Source: Parus major (taxonomy: Eukaryota; Chordata; Aves; Passeriformes; Paridae). Taken from it: DNA of 64,000 nt. The notes under the pieces were generated by a model. That model searched no databases. It worked only from the letters and a program-made list of their open reading frames with translations, and was not told the DNA's origin. Positions 1 through 63,800 of this stretch are shown here, in pieces. Position 1 is the first letter of the stretch. Each line of letters starts with the position of its first letter. The position numbers and the translations under genes were made by a program. The DNA lies in assembly GCF_001522545.3 (NCBI RefSeq), contig NC_031770.1, positions 23,296,296-23,360,295 of the forward strand, given 5' to 3'.

Positions 1-218
1 GGGAGTAGTTCGGCACTCGCTGCCGTGCTGGGGTCGCGGCGCAGGGACGGAGCCGGGCAGCGCCGGCCCCGCAGCAGCGCCAGAAGCAGCGGCGGCAGGA
101 GGAGGAGGAGGAGGAGCCGGAGCCGCCGAGCGCAGGGAGCCGCCGGAGCCGCTGCCCCGGGCGGCTTGTGAGCGCCGGGCTGCGGCGCCGCCGCTGCCTG
201 CCGCTGCTTCGCGGGTGA

Positions 219-314
219 ATGAACCTGTCCCGGCCGACCACGACGGCGGCTTCGCCTCGGGCTCCGGCACCAGCCTCCCCCCGTACAAGATGGACGGTTT
301 CGCCGGGAGTTTGG
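219..314 (+). other. Upstream ATG/uORF overlapping the EML4 start
   Basis: An ATG at 219 lies 71 bases before the main start in another frame. Its context is weak (T at -3, A at +4). It stays open across the start at 290 and to the end of the exon: exactly 32 codons, so in spliced mRNA its frame continues at the first base of exon 2. An overlapping uORF would lower initiation at 290 if used, but leaky scanning past this weak context is likely. It is probably regulatory at most, not a protein gene. Confidence 0.4.
290..314 (+). CDS. EML4: EML4 first coding exon (1a), partial CDS
   Basis: EML4 is a microtubule-associated protein of the EMAP family. It has an N-terminal coiled-coil trimerisation segment, a basic linker and a C-terminal HELP/TAPE beta-propeller domain, and it acts on interphase and spindle microtubules. 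Only the first eight codons and one base of the ninth are here: ATG at 290 gives MDGFAGSL, then G at 314 before the GTGAGT donor. Family knowledge: EML4 begins MDGFAGSLDDSISAAS, with exon 1 ending in this phase so that exon 2 completes Asp9. The start choice is supported by a strong Kozak context (A at -3, G at +4) and the exact match to the known N-terminus. The rest of the coding sequence, including the trimerisation segment, lies beyond the window. The sequence match is short, but residues, phase and CpG-island context agree. Confidence 0.85.
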
Positions 315-3300
315 GTGAGTGGCGGCGGGACGGGACGGGACGAGGTGCGGGCAGCCCGCCTGCGGCGGGGCCCGGGGCGCGCACCTGCGGCCGGCGGGGA
401 TGCCGGAGCCGCCGGCAGGGACTGCCCGGTGCCGGCCGGGCCGGTGCGTGCGAACACCGCCCGCGGCGGGAGGGGAGGGGATGCCAGCGCGAAATCTGGT
501 CAGCTTCAAACCATCTGTTGCGAGAGCTCCGGCTGCACTTGCCTTCTTTGTTCTTCGCTCGCCGTGGGTTTGCGCTTCCCCAGAGCTAGTTGCTTGGCTT
601 TGGGCTGATGGTTTGGCTCAAGCTGTTTGGGTTTTTTTAAACGTTATTTTGTTTTTTGTCTCTTCTTTTTGCTCCGAGCGGGAGAGACGCCGTCGGTCCG
701 GGTGCAGCGGGCCCGGTGTCGCACCGAGAGCCGCGGAAAGCTCTGCCCTGTCCCGGCTCAGAGCGGCTCCAAGGGGAACGCAGCACCCCTGGAAACCTGG
801 GGGCGCTGGCGGCATCCGCGGGAATGGTAACGGGGCAGTCGGCACCTTCCCGGTGTCCGAGCATCCGTCCGTGCGCCCGAGGCGCCCTTCGGGCTGCTTG
901 GGCGGCAGGTTCCTCTGCCGGAGCCCTGGCGTGAGCGAAAATATTAACTGCTTGTTTTTGGTGCCAGAAAACTGATAGGCTGCTCTGCCTTCAGTTTTAT
1001 GAAGGCTGCGGCAATTTCTCACCAGTTTCTTGAAGCAAAAATACTCCACCAGACCAGTTTTTGACTCGTTTGGGGGACAGATCGCCTGTGCAGCCAGGTT
1101 GTGCTGATTACAGGTGTCAATTGACCATGTATCCAAATGTAACACTTGTAAACCGTGTAAGTTTCCATTTCTGCAAATTTTAAGACCGTTGACTTCGAGG
1201 TGCTGCCTACCTGCTGCTCTCATCGTATTCAGTGCTGCTGCATCTATTGCAGGCATTTTGTGCTCAAACTCACTCCATCTTTTGTAGAATAATAAATCTA
1301 TGCCCCTTAAAAACAAGACTAATTTATTTTTACGTCACTCCCGTAAAACCTGTAGTAACAGTGAATAGTTCTCAATTTTCTGGAAAAATTGACTCATTTA
1401 AATACTTCTAAGTGTGATCCTAACCTTTCAGGTTTTTGAAATGTCAACTCCAGCATTTTGGGCATCTCTCCAAACCAAACCGGTGCACCATAATTAACAG
1501 TATGCTTTGGTAGTTTGGCTCTTTGCCAGATATACTGTCCTTGCTCAAGTAACTGCCATGGCCATTTTAGATCTGGTGATCAGAAAGCGACACATGGAGG
1601 AATTGTACGGGTTCTGTTCCCGGTTTTCTGAGGGAAGATTGTGCCTGTGGGTGACATATGTAAATGTGCCTTGGTTAATATTTATGAACCTCTTAACCCA
1701 GCAGAAGAACTGATCACCATATCAAAGCACACCGATATTGCTTTTAACTCGTGCAGTATTGGTCCCCTGAGGTCGATATTTAGAAATAACTGTTTTTTGT
1801 TGGAAGTAGGAAAAAACTCAATTATTATGAAATAATTAAGCTTTGCTTTCTGGCATGGAGTTTCTCAGTGGACAGTGGCATTGGATCATCGGGTGGGCCA
1901 GCACCTTGTGCTGTGGAGCCATGATGGGCTCATTGGGGCATCCCATGTGTCTTGTTAACGGGGGCTCCATCTGGATCTTTAATTTGTTTCACTGTTTGTT
2001 CAGGAACACGCTGTGATTTTATGTGAATTTAATGAGGATTAAGCTCAGCTCAACCTTTTAAAATGTGTATTATGATATTCACTGCTAGTTGGCCTTTGAT
2101 TTTGCTTTTGTGGCAAGCACTGATGCTCAGAGGTTTTCTGGACTTGGGCTGAGGGGAGGGCATTCCCAGAATCTTTTGCTTTGAAGTATGAAACTTTATG
2201 TGACTTTTTTGTTTCCAGGTTTGAATCATGCTGCTCAGTCCTCTTCTGTATTTTAATCACTTGTTGGCTTTTCTAGCTGCTAATGAGCACATAGTGTTCA
2301 CAAAGATGTGTGAATTGTTCTGAGACCTTTTTTTTTTAAACATCTCTAATTAAAATCTAATGGCTTGAATTTAATCAGCTGTCTGCTAAATGTCTTTTAG
2401 GAAGGCCATAAATTAATGTAATTTAGAATGAAATGTAAAAATTAATTAAAATTATTGTTGGCAAAACTGTGCTGTCTATGTATGTGCATGCTCAACCAGT
2501 CAAGCAAGCTTATTAGAGAGCAAGTTGTCCTTTTAATGCCTCCTGTCATTATCTGGAAGGCAAAATGTTATTACAGATTGTGCCCTCTAGCACAGGCAGA
2601 AATACCTTCTTGCATGTCTCTTGCAGTTGAAAATACTTTACGCAGCTGTTTTCTTTTGGCTTCCACATTGAAACTTTTATGAGAATAAACAGAGGAAAGA
2701 AACCATTTTATATGTAATTTAGAAAATTGTTTTGGTTATTGGCTTAGTAAGTGCTTATGTAGCACTCTACTTACAAGTATACAATTACTGTATACAGTAA
2801 AAAAAAACTCTATGTTATGAGTTAACTTGCACAGTTGAAATAGATATCGGTTATTTTGATAAAGCACTGAGTTATTTCCTGTTTGCTGTGACTTCAGTAC
2901 CTTTAGAATATCACAGTGATAACTGGATCCCATTTATTGTCTCATGTAGGACAGTTGTGTCTCACATTTGGCATTGCCAAAGTGATGGCTCTCAGAGGGC
3001 TCAATGGATTCTGGCCATCTGCTTTTTCAGATTCATCCCTCGAAGTCAAAGAATGTGCTTCTGAATGGGAACAAGAAGTCTGTGAACTTGGACTGGGGTG
3101 CCTGGGCTCTTGCCTTGTGCCCTGGCTGAGACAGAAGCACAGCATGGGTGTCTGGCTCTGATGCTGCCAAGTTCCCCTGCCCCTCAGGGTCCTCATCAAA
3201 ACAGACGTGCATCAGAGCAGAGAAAGCACTGCTGATTCTGCCAACGGAGTCAAGCAGAGAGTTCTAGCAAAAGGGAAAAATAAAAAAGGCAAATAAAAAA

Positions 3301-57021: not shown

Positions 57022-57066
<45 letters not shown>
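57022..57066. repeat. 45-base uninterrupted T run
   Basis: The run lies between TTTTCCTC and AAACTACTAAAG. It could be the poly(A) tail of a minus-strand retrocopy, but the sequence to its right resembles no known gene or SINE and no target-site duplication is apparent. Homopolymers of this length are also prone to sequencing and assembly length errors. Confidence 0.9.
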
Positions 57067-59460: not shown

Positions 59461-59479
59461 CCAATATAATACTGAGCAA

Positions 59480-60830
59480 ACTGCTGCCGCCTTCTTCCCC
59501 CGCCGTGTGAACTCCCCGTGTCACTGCTCCTGTCACTCCTCATGTCGCGCCGTGGCTGACGATAGATGGGTGCCGTTTCTGACGGACAGACAGACATGCT
59601 TTGAAACAACAATGGTTTATCTGCATCTCCCGGTGGTATTGTCGTTAGTCCCTGGCGGTGGTTCTTTATGCCCCGAGCGCGGACAGACGGCTGGCTGTGG
59701 GATGTTTATGGCCCGTGCACCGCTGTGCCCCCGGCCGTGACACCGAGCGGCGCGGGGGTGTCTTTTCCCGATTGCTGCGCTTCCCTGTGGGGAGAGTGCA
59801 GGACCCTGTCCGTGCAGGAGCAGCTGCCGCTTTCCCGTTCGGGAGCAGCTCGGCGGGCTCCGCTTCCCTGCCGGGCGGGCTCCGCGTCGCTGCCGAGCAG
59901 GCCCCGGGGGCCGCGGCCCCCGGCCGGTGCCGCAGGGAGCGCGTGTCCGCCGCCTGCGGGCGGCCCCTCCCCGGGCCCCGGCCCGCCCCCGGCCTCCCGC
60001 GCTCGCTCCGGGGCAGGGGCTCGGGCGGCGGGGCCGGCCGCCGCCAGCAGGGCTCGGTGCTCCGGGACCGTGTGCTGGGCGCCCGCCGGCCGGGTCGCGG
60101 CGCGGGAGCTCTCGCTGAGGCGCGGCGGGGCCGGCTCGGCGGCGCTGGCGGCCGGAGGGATGGAGGAAAGCTTGTCCTGCCTGGCCGCAGCCTGCGACCC
60201 CTCGGCGCTCGCCACCTTCTGCACGGGTAAAGTACCGCGCTGCCCCGCGCAGGGAGGGCTCGCTCAGAGCCATCCCCGGCGCTCTCCGCCCCGCATTTCC
60301 CATCCCTGGAGGCGAGAGAAAGGGAAGCCTGTCAGCGCCGGGGTAGGCTCTGCCCTGCGAGGTGTGAGGCTGGCTGGCCCCGCGTCCCCGTCAGCAGCCC
60401 GCAAGGTGTGCCTGCCCAGGGGCTGGGGGGCTCGCTGCCGTGCGGCACCCGCACCGCGAGAAGGTTGGCAAAAAAGAGATAAACACATGCAACCGGGACG
60501 TGCGTGGGTAGCGGAGGAGGCTACAGGGTGACAAAGATGAAGTTAATGCTCGCTGGACGGGAGGTGCGGAGCAGCGTGCGTCCCGACGGCCCGGGGCTCG
60601 GAGAGGGAAGAGTTTGGTGCGAGGGACCTTTCGCAGCCCTCGTGAAAGGGCGGCTCTGGCGGGTCCAGCCTTTCCTTTGGACCTCTCGGTTTGACGCTCT
60701 CCGAAGGAAAAGCCGGAGGAAACCCCGCTGGGACTCGCGGGGCCTCAGGCAGGCGGCAGTAAAGGCTCGTTCAGCGAGGGGAGAGCAGAACTGCGCCTGC
60801 TGCAGCTTTCTCGGTCTGTCCAACCTGTAT
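59480..60830 (+). promoter_or_regulatory. EML4: Second CpG island; candidate alternative EML4 promoter
   Basis: CpG and G+C rise sharply from about 59.5 kb, peak at 59.85-60.25 kb and fade by about 60.83 kb. The island is about 60 kb from exon 1a and surrounded by AT-rich intron. A GC box (CCGCCCCC, within 59982-59990) and other C/G tracts lie 150-250 bases before the candidate start codon. No TATA box is evident. It is as strong as the island at the window start and contains a well-formed first exon (next entry), so I read it as a second promoter of the same gene. A promoter for an unrelated or antisense transcript cannot be excluded from sequence alone. Confidence 0.7.
60160..60226 (+). CDS. 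EML4: Candidate alternative EML4 first coding exon (1b)
   Basis: ATG at 60160 has a strong Kozak context (G at -3, G at +4) and encodes 22 residues starting MEESLSCLAAAC and ending DPSALATFCT. One more base (G) precedes the donor ACGG|GTAAAGT at 60226/60227. The splice phase is the same as in exon 1a, so joining to EML4 exon 2 gives ...FCT-DDSISAAS. No polypyrimidine-AG acceptor precedes it, as expected for a first rather than an internal exon. Family comparison, from memory: EML1 starts MEDGFSS and ends this exon with SLLQFCN before DDSASAAS. The two align without gaps at 22 residues with identities at M1, E2, S6, D13, S15, L17, F20 and C21. The isoform would replace MDGFAGSL but keep the trimerisation segment of exon 2. 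The frame is open upstream to at least 59668, but that Pro/Arg/Ala-rich extension is typical of CpG islands and probably untranslated. Transcription is unproven here. Confidence 0.72.
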
Positions 60831-63800
60831 TTGCCCTTCAGAACTAGGGGTGCTTTTCCCTTCTTCCTTTATTTTTACCAGTGTCGTAGTAAAAACGAAA
60901 TATTTCAATACATTTTCTTTCTATTTTAAACAGCTGCTATCAAAACAGCTTCTCTTGAGTGCAAATTAGGTAATTAATTATTCTGACTGTAGCTACAAAA
61001 ACTATATGGCCTTAACAAGACCTGCCAACCAAATAACCCTTGCCAAGAAATCCTATCAGAGATAAAGCGTGTTCCTCTCATACACGGAGTGGAAGTGTTT
61101 TACTGCGAATGAAACAGACGTCAGCGAGCTACCCGTTCTTTGCTTGCTGATTCATGCCATGCAATTTGGATACAAATGCAGCATCTCGCATGTAAAACCT
61201 TGCACTTATGGCCGAAAATACAATGGTCCACAGAAAAGTTTCCTTAAAAAAATAAAAAGGAGCAAGTGCTTAAAGCATAGATTTCTGTAGGCATTTAATG
61301 GAAGAAAGGACCTTGCTATAATGTACTTTGTTAAAGTGAGTACTGTACTTTATCTGCTTCAGAATTCAAAGCATTTGGTTTAGAATTCAAGATGTTGCAA
61401 CCCTCAAGAAAGAAGGGAGGGTAAATTGGAAACGTTAACATTTTAAGTGCTTTGTATGATTTTTTTGCAGGCTTGCAAGGATTTTTACTGTAGAAAAGAA
61501 AAGCTAATGTTTAGCTGTTTGTCTTCAGAAAAAAATTCAAAAGAAAAGCATTTTTTATGGCTATAGCTTGGAACTTTTTTACCAATATTTGAAGGTTTCT
61601 GTGACAACATTTCTACTGACTTAATGGATTGTAACAAAAGTTTCTGTGATTGTCCGTAAAAAATTTATCAGTATCTCAAACCTCAACTCAAGGCATATCT
61701 TGAAGTTCCAAACTGAGTGTGACATAATAGATTTACCTTTGAGGTTTGTATAGAAATCCGACAAAATAAGATGCAAGAAATGCATTCTTTTCTGAATGCA
61801 TATGTTCTATTTTTATTTTATTTTCTCTGTCTCTGGAAATTGTTTTTACTGAAATCTTGATACAAGTCTGAGCATTTTGCAGGATAAGAGCATTTGTAAT
61901 TAAAAGAAAATGTAGCTTTGGATATTCTTAGCAGGGTAGTATGTTTTGTTGATTTAAAACTTGATTCCTACTTGTATGGTTAAGCCTAATATTCCTTTAT
62001 ATCAGGTTTCCCAATGACAGTGTGTTGGCTTGTGTATAAAGTGAGTGATAAGAAACTGGATTGATGGGGAATCAACAAGTGCTTTGTTCCTGTGAAATTT
62101 CTAACTTCAGCCTTGAGGGCTTTTGCACTGGTAACAAGTATGGAAAAGCCTGAGATTAAGTTATAGAAAGTATTTATTTTTTTTTCTTCTTTTTGTTGGG
62201 CTATGCATGCTCATTCTCGCTTTATTTAAACGAGCTTAGGGCTTTATACTAACAGTAGAGTATTTCAGGTGAGGGTTTTGGGTATAACTTAATTTTTTTA
62301 AAAATAAGTATCCTAGTGTGATATATTTTTCTACAGAACTTTTCTACCTTTAATTGTGATTTGTTTTGCACACCTCTAATTGCCCATTTCTTGCCAGAGC
62401 TAAAAATTAATTCCTAATTCAGCAGTAAAGAACTAGCATTTCCTTTTAACATATGGCTGCTGATAGGCAGCTTAATCACATTTTTTAAAAAAGCTTGTCT
62501 GGTGTCAGTAGGAAAGACATCTTTTTTTCTTCTTTTTCTAATTAGCCTTTTATAATTAAAGCTAAGGCAATGACATGTCCCTTAGGAAGAGTGTAGCTAT
62601 CAAACTGGATATGGGCTGGAATTTATCTCAGACAATACTCATCAGGATAGAAATTTTCATTTTGACCAAGAGAATTATTTATCTGCAAACAAATCTTCAG
62701 TTGGCATGCTTCTAGATTAAATATTTACCTCCAGTGATACTTGGCATTGAAATTGGTATTTATAAACAGGGGAAGAAACAAACAAGCTCGAACATCCCAG
62801 TATTTTTAAGCTTGATTTCTTTCAGACTCTTGATTTGTATGCATTTGTCTTTAATGTTTAAGACATAGAGAGAGTTTGTTTAGGGTGTTTTTACAGTGTT
62901 TTCCAGTTGCTGGAGATATTGATGGCAGAAGTTGGGTTGTAACAGTGGCTCTGCAGGGTTTCTCAGAGGGTGACACTGGGTCTGCCTTAGGCTTGGTGCC
63001 AAGGGGCTGTCACTGTGCTGTGGAGGGCACCTCGACTGGCAGTGCCTGTGCCACCTGCCTCGTTGGCAGGCAGTGACAGTGGCTGGCACATTCTGCTATT
63101 CCTGCTGCCTTGCTTCCCTGCACAGGTGCTGGTGCAAAATTATTTAATTTGAATTAGTGTCTGACATAAGGGACTGTGCTGTGAGTATTTGGGTGTTAAA
63201 AGAGCCTTTCTCTTTCTAGTGCCTGCAGTGCTATGTGTACACAACATAAAATGGTACATACTGTAAATGTCGGGATAGGTTTTCATCTCATGCTATTTAG
63301 AAGGCCAGTACCTTGCCTCAATTGAAGTCTCGTTTTTTGACTTTGTAGTTACCTTCTAACACAGTAGTATCATTTTTGGGTAACATTTTTTCTGTTTTGC
63401 CAGTTCAGATCTCTAGCTGGGTCCTAACAGTTCTAGGAATACTTATTAGTCATCAGAAGGGAGTTGAGGAGATAGTAGTGACTTGTGCAGGGTAATCGTT
63501 ACCGTTTTTTAGCAGTTGCAGGAAGTAATTACAAGTTGAAGTAGTTGCAAGCCACACTTGCAAGTTGCTGAAGTATCAAAATTGGTGAAATGTCAGAGGT
63601 GGAGTTGACGCAGCAAACTTGTCATTAAAGGTCAGCTAGAAAGGTTCAGACTGCACACACTTTCTCAGCACCAAGTCTTTGCTGTCAAATGATGAACCCT
63701 ACCTCATACCCCTGCTTCTCACAGAGAAGTAAGTTCAGCCAGAAAGAGGTGGCATTGGAAACTTCCCTCTTGCAGCAGACTTCTTCAGCCTGCTCCTTCT

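What the first reader, a model, noticed from the sequence alone, without database searches (positions are those of the whole stretch)
59480..60830. Second CpG island 60 kb into EML4 intron 1 marks an alternative promoter with its own coding first exon
A CpG island as strong as the one at exon 1a sits alone in AT-rich intron. It contains ATG (strong Kozak), 22 codons and a consensus donor in exactly the phase needed to enter EML4 exon 2, with no acceptor upstream. Two promoters would allow tissue-specific EML4 isoforms with different N-termini directly before the trimerisation coiled coil.
Basis: partly seen in the sequence, partly recalled or inferred. Interest (0 to 1): 0.78.

Follow-up and report, generated by a model that had tools for sequence, protein, structure and literature searches.

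The report
Second start exon of songbird EML4
This bird's EML4 gene, which encodes a microtubule-binding protein, appears to have a second promoter with its own short coding first exon, of a kind also seen in sharks and mammals and resembling the first exon of the sister gene EML1.

Summary
A 1,430-base CpG island (59471-60900), one of two in the window, lies in EML4 intron 1. It holds ATG 60160, 22 codons (MEESLSCLAAACDPSALATFCT) and a phase-1 donor at 60227. EML4 exon 2 lies 18 kb on, outside the window, and restores DDSISAAS. Of 120 listed relatives, 66 by a set pattern and 13 more by eye begin with this exon type; they come from birds, turtles, lizards, mammals, amphibians, coelacanth and cartilaginous fishes. 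Two are whole proteins on 5.4-5.6 kb contigs, too short for the gene, so probably from RNA; neither is from this species. The exon matches EML1's first exon without gaps, at the same length, phase and junction. In this genome EML1 also has that long first exon in a CpG island, and a probable, not proven, short first exon 42 kb further upstream. Two start exons may therefore predate the EML1/EML4 split. Such EML4 isoforms already exist as database predictions; eight open-access searches gave no paper on the exon or the EML1 parallel. Use in this species, tissue specificity and function are untested.

The parts
59471..60900 (.). CpG island, presumed promoter 1b of EML4
   Evidence: GC 0.683, observed/expected 0.89; one of two islands in the window
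59901..60159 (+). likely start-site region and 5' leader of exon 1b (inferred)
   Evidence: most GC-rich part (59900-60200: GC 0.85); no ATG from 59709 to 60159 and no TATA-like word in 59800-60200; start site itself not observed
60160..60226 (+). coding part of exon 1b: MEESLSCLAAACDPSALATFCT plus one base
   Evidence: translation; same exon type in 66 (pattern) + 13 (by eye) of 120 listed relatives; homologous to EML1 exon 1
60227..60228 (+). splice donor of exon 1b, phase 1, to exon 2 at 78305 (window scale, outside the window)
   Evidence: CGG|GTAAAG, 5.8 bits, fair; exon 2 located
1..1057 (.). CpG island of exon 1a, reaching upstream to -375
290..314 (+). coding part of exon 1a: MDGFAGSL plus one base, donor at 315

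Best explanation
The island is a second promoter of EML4. Transcription starts inside it, probably near 59.9-60.15 kb, and the first ATG met is 60160. The 22-codon exon 1b is spliced over 18 kb to exon 2, giving an EML4 whose first 8 residues (MDGFAGSL) are replaced by 22 others directly before the trimerisation coiled coil. Exon 1b is the EML4 counterpart of EML1 exon 1, inherited from the common ancestor of the two genes. Shown: gene, frame, conservation of the exon type, homology to EML1, and the 1b-to-exon-2 junction in proteins of other species. Inferred: start site, use in this species, tissue-restricted use, any difference in function.
For: Only two CpG islands in the window, each with a phase-1 coding first exon. 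Exon 2 of EML4 18 kb downstream in frame, with later EML4 exons following in order to about 145 kb. 79 of 120 listed relatives carry the exon type (66 by pattern, 13 by eye). P0028 and P0061, 992 and 1,015 residues on contigs of at most 5,443 and 5,599 bases, align from exon 1b on with annotated EML4 (88% and 89% identity). EML1 exon 1: gapless, 8 of 22 identical, 0 of 200,000 shuffles reach the score; seven of seven EML4 versions tested z 5.4-6.9. EML1 exon 1 in the same genome lies in a CpG island, same length and phase, 41 of 67 bases identical. Mouse Eml1 forms have unique first exons and differ in expression (PMC7101416).
Against: No expression data for this species. Many supporting proteins are automated predictions. 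The donor is only fair and stronger-scoring GTs lie downstream in the island. 27 of 120 listed relatives have yet other or partial starts. Exon 1b varies: duck and pangolin versions share only 6 of 22 residues with EML1, and parrot versions have 21 residues and lack the conserved F, which hints at relaxed constraint in some lineages.
Confidence: 0.92

Rival explanations
1. The island drives a non-coding or antisense transcript or acts as an enhancer, and the ATG, 22 codons and donor are incidental.
For: Better-scoring donor-like GTs occur downstream in the island; long open frames exist on both strands, as is usual in GC-rich DNA; no expression data.
Against: The exon type recurs in 79 of 120 listed EML4 relatives; two full-length proteins on short contigs include it; 0 of 200,000 shuffles match EML1 exon 1 as well.
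Confidence: 0.04
2. Exon 1b is real, but its likeness to EML1 exon 1 is convergence or chance, not common descent.
For: Only 22 residues; base-level BLAST of the two islands gives only 11-12 base matches, best E 0.2; identity falls to 6 of 22 in ducks and pangolin.
Against: Same length, phase and junction, no gaps; z 5.4-6.9 in seven of seven versions, 0 of 50,000 shuffles each; chimaera and marsupial versions are among the most EML1-like (10 and 12 of 22); exon 2 is paralogous too.
Confidence: 0.05
3. The exon is a decaying relic in this lineage: annotated from homology or frame but hardly used in songbirds.
For: Parrot and duck versions diverge strongly; fair donor.
Against: Window and Vidua versions differ by one residue, frame and splice phase are intact; the island keeps high CpG.
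Confidence: 0.12

Closest known systems
Predicted EML4 isoforms in databases, e.g. EML4 isoform X4 of Vidua macroura (P0002)
   Same: Same first exon (one residue different) joined to the same exon 2
   Different: Unnamed among computed isoforms; the promoter, the conservation and the EML1 kinship are not described in the listing
Alternative first exons of EML1 (mouse Eml1-203 against -201/-202; human EML1 isoform 7)
   Same: A 22-codon exon homologous to EML4 1b, and a second, short first exon, joined to a common exon 2
   Different: In mouse Eml1 the long form is the ubiquitous one (PMC7101416); in EML4 the short exon 1a heads the form taken as full length (main form recalled)
Long and short variants of EML2 and EML4 (PMC12182296; outline and passages read)
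   Same: N-terminal diversity of EML proteins with effects on microtubule binding
   Different: Those EML4 variants drop or add internal stretches or lose the first 79 residues; the passages read describe no 22-residue alternative first exon among six human EML4 variants

Membership tests
Alternative first exon of EML4 | Lies within EML4, upstream of exon 2, same strand | tested here: met
   exon 2 at 78305 and later EML4 exons follow
Alternative first exon of EML4 | Donor phase fits exon 2 | tested here: met
   phase 1; joined frame open through exon 2
Alternative first exon of EML4 | Spliced junction to exon 2 seen in RNA of this species | not testable with these tools
   no read data; seen only in proteins of other species
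CpG-island promoter | GC at least 0.55 and CpG observed/expected at least 0.65 over more than 500 bases | tested here: met
   1,430 bases, 0.683 and 0.89
CpG-island promoter | Start-site or H3K4me3 signal | not testable with these tools
   no such data here
Paralogue of EML1 exon 1 | Significant gapless protein match at the same length, phase and junction | tested here: met
Paralogue of EML1 exon 1 | Same gene layout in both genes: short first exon, long first exon, exon 2 | tested here: inconclusive
   long exon of EML1 certain; short exon MSDCEGLPV at L026:9263 is the best of 1,138 candidates, but only just (19 against 18), 371 of 50,000 shuffles reach its score, and the CpG stretch around it is weak

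The most novel reading that the evidence does not exclude
The ancestor of EML1 and EML4, before jawed vertebrates, already had two promoters: a distal one with a short first exon and a proximal one with a 22-codon first exon. After duplication the genes divided them reciprocally: EML1 kept the long-exon start as its main, nearly unchanging form and restricts the short one; EML4 made the short-exon start its main form and kept the long one as a faster-changing alternative. Both pairs still stand in the same order in this bird.
Probability: 0.45. Interest if true: 0.62.

Novelty: new member of a known kind. Interest (0 to 1): 0.45.

Why it matters
EML4 is a common fusion partner of ALK in lung cancer (abstracts in the listing); that breakpoints lie after exon 1, so that a promoter in intron 1 would sit on the fusion side, is recalled. 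Work that tags, depletes or counts EML4 by exon 1a would miss 1b isoforms. If both promoters predate the EML1/EML4 split, the pair is a natural test of how duplicate genes share out alternative promoters. Whether humans have exon 1b was not tested.

Tried and rejected
Rfam scan of the window: no match at gathering score. BLAST of the two islands at base level: nothing significant, so homology rests on protein, length and phase. A pattern for the human short EML1 exon (MSDGEGP) had no hit in the bird genome; the bird candidate differs at two of those seven residues. The query carried MDGFAGSL on an EML1 body: none of the 120 listed EML1 relatives starts that way; 5 of 120 carry MSDGEGPSA, most of the others look like partial or intron-derived starts. 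The genome search with the coiled coil found only EML4 and EML1 (2 matches), so EML2 and EML3 were not compared.

Literature: searches showed no paper on a second EML4 first exon or the EML1/EML4 exon parallel; others (20 of 32; 20 of 677) list only part. Passages of PMC7780684, PMC4176323 and PMC8752984 concern other things. PMC4438066 (passages) reports brain-specific skipping of an EML4 exon, not stated to be a first exon.

Caveats on counts: the protein listings show the best 120 of 696, 1,146 and 1,150; ranks by likeness to human EML1, so '119 of 120 hold the same 22 residues' overstates constancy. The database is clustered at 90% identity, so isoforms differing only in 22 residues can be hidden; absence of primates or rodents among the 1b rows is no evidence of loss. 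In one search, of 2,357 mini-exons those under 12 codons were dropped, leaving 1,289.

Full report
WHAT IS THERE. Window 290-314 encodes MDGFAGSL and one further base before a donor. This is the start of EML4: PDB chain 4cgc, named EML4, begins GSLDDSISAAS. EML4 exon 2 lies at 78305 on the window scale after TACAG, and further EML4 exons follow in order to about 145 kb. The finding therefore sits in EML4 intron 1, 60 kb after exon 1a and 18 kb before exon 2. The closest relative of the exon is in Vidua, one residue different, so the bird is probably a songbird.

THE ISLAND AND THE EXON. By a 200-base sliding criterion (GC at least 0.55, observed/expected at least 0.65) the window has two CpG islands, 1-1057 and 59471-60900. 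The second has GC 0.683 and observed/expected 0.89; the background is 0.39 and 0.146. ATG 60160 stands in a strong context, with no ATG from 59709 to 60159. It opens 22 codons, MEESLSCLAAACDPSALATFCT, plus one base, then CGG|GTAAAG. Joined to exon 2 it reads MEESLSCLAAACDPSALATFCT-DDSISAASTSDVQDRLS, open to the end of exon 2. The donor is only fair, and three GTs further on in the island score higher on a recalled matrix.

IS IT AN EXON? A search with the predicted 1b protein, scored over its first 90 residues, gave 696 relatives, of which 120 are listed. Of these 120, 66 begin with this exon type by a set pattern and 13 more by eye (parrot versions of 21 residues, duck versions with an extra insert, one frog, three cut short); 14 begin MDGFAGSL; 27 have other or partial starts. 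Carriers include songbirds, raptors, ducks, turtles, lizards, bats, horse, cats, marsupials, monotremes, axolotl, frogs, coelacanth, chimaera, a shark and a skate. In 16 versions compared, the window's among them, M1, E2, L5, L17 and C21 never vary, and S15 and F20 vary once each. Many rows are automated predictions. Two, P0028 and P0061, have longest contigs of 5,443 and 5,599 bases and yet hold 992 and 1,015 residues that align, from exon 1b on, with annotated EML4.

WHERE IT COMES FROM. The residues line up without a gap with the first exon of EML1, MEDGFSSYSSLYDTSSLLQFCN, which I first recalled and then found in database proteins (119 of 120 listed hold these 22 residues, a ranking-biased count). 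Mouse Eml1 forms have unique first exons, and the long-form primer LF1 translates to SYSSLYDT (PMC7101416, RT-PCR passage). The window exon scores 40 against EML1, 8 of 22 identical; 0 of 200,000 shuffles reach it; it is the best of 1,289 mini-exons of at least 12 codons on both strands, the next scoring 23. Seven of seven EML4 versions tested, from chimaera to bird, give z 5.4 to 6.9. Marsupial versions share 12 of 22 residues, duck and pangolin versions 6. In this genome EML1 exon 1 lies at C7:49997204-49997269, 27.5 kb before EML1 exon 2, inside a 1,577-base CpG island, in the same phase, with 41 of 67 bases the same as EML4 exon 1b. Base-level BLAST of the islands finds nothing significant.

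TWO STARTS IN BOTH GENES? A third protein search showed 5 of 120 listed EML1 relatives, among them human isoform 7, with MSDGEGPSA before DDSASAAS: a short first exon of EML1. In the bird, L026:9263 (C7:49954966) reads MSDCEGLPV plus one base before GTAAGC, 42.2 kb upstream of the long exon, in a weakly CpG-rich stretch of a locus with 350 unread bases. It is the best of 1,138 candidates of 8-10 codons, but narrowly (19 against 18), and 371 of 50,000 shuffles reach it: probable, not proven. A stronger CpG island lies some 19 kb further upstream (L027:1-594 with L028:9649-10000) and may belong to another gene. If the short exon is right, EML1 and EML4 share one layout: short exon; 42 or 60 kb; long exon; 27 or 18 kb; exon 2; all in phase 1. 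The short exons are too small to prove kinship (3 of 7 residues after the start; 2.4% of shuffles reach the score).

HOW IT PROBABLY WORKS. Promoter 1b starts an mRNA whose first ATG is that of exon 1b. If promoter 1a starts before 219, its mRNA carries a 52-codon upstream frame, in a weak context, that overlaps the MDGFAGSL start, so the two mRNAs may also differ in translation. Both proteins keep the coiled coil and what follows. In mouse the Eml1 long form is ubiquitous and the short forms are limited in time and tissue (PMC7101416, section 5). By analogy one EML4 start is likely restricted; which one, and where, is unknown.

WHAT IS KNOWN AND WHAT IS NEW. The isoform is in databases as predictions. 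Eight searches of an open-access library showed no paper on it or on the layout shared with EML1; most subscription papers are not held there. The passages read of PMC12182296 describe six human EML4 variants and none with this first exon. Added here: the confirmation, the depth of conservation, and the EML1 parallel.

LIMITS. No expression data for this species; many rows automated; best 120 rows only; clustering hides isoforms; constancy of EML1 exon 1 overstated by ranking, although chicken and char versions are identical.

Noticed in passing
window 219-314, continuing in exon 2: Exon 1a holds an upstream ATG (219, weak context) whose 52-codon frame overlaps the MDGFAGSL start after splicing; falcon predictions P0108 and P0110 also start MNLSRP.
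   Followed up: partly
L026:9263 (G000:C7:49954966): Candidate short first exon of EML1 in this bird, MSDCEGLPV before GTAAGC, like human EML1 isoform 7 (MSDGEGPSA).
   Followed up: partly
L027:1-594 and L028:9649-10000 (G000:C7 near 49935350-49936300): A CpG island about 19 kb upstream of the candidate EML1 short exon; may be the promoter of a neighbouring gene.
   Followed up: no
P0038, P0040, P0068 (duck EML4 predictions): An extra insert (EQNSAEEKFLRLYLAS...) between exon 1b and DDSISAAS, suggesting one more optional exon in intron 1.
   Followed up: no
P0029, P0032, P0033, P0035, P0036, P0037 (parrot EML4 predictions): Exon 1b has 21 residues and lacks the conserved F before the C-T end: faster change or decay in parrots.
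   Followed up: no
window 57022-57066: A run of 45 T about 2.4 kb upstream of the island.
   Followed up: no
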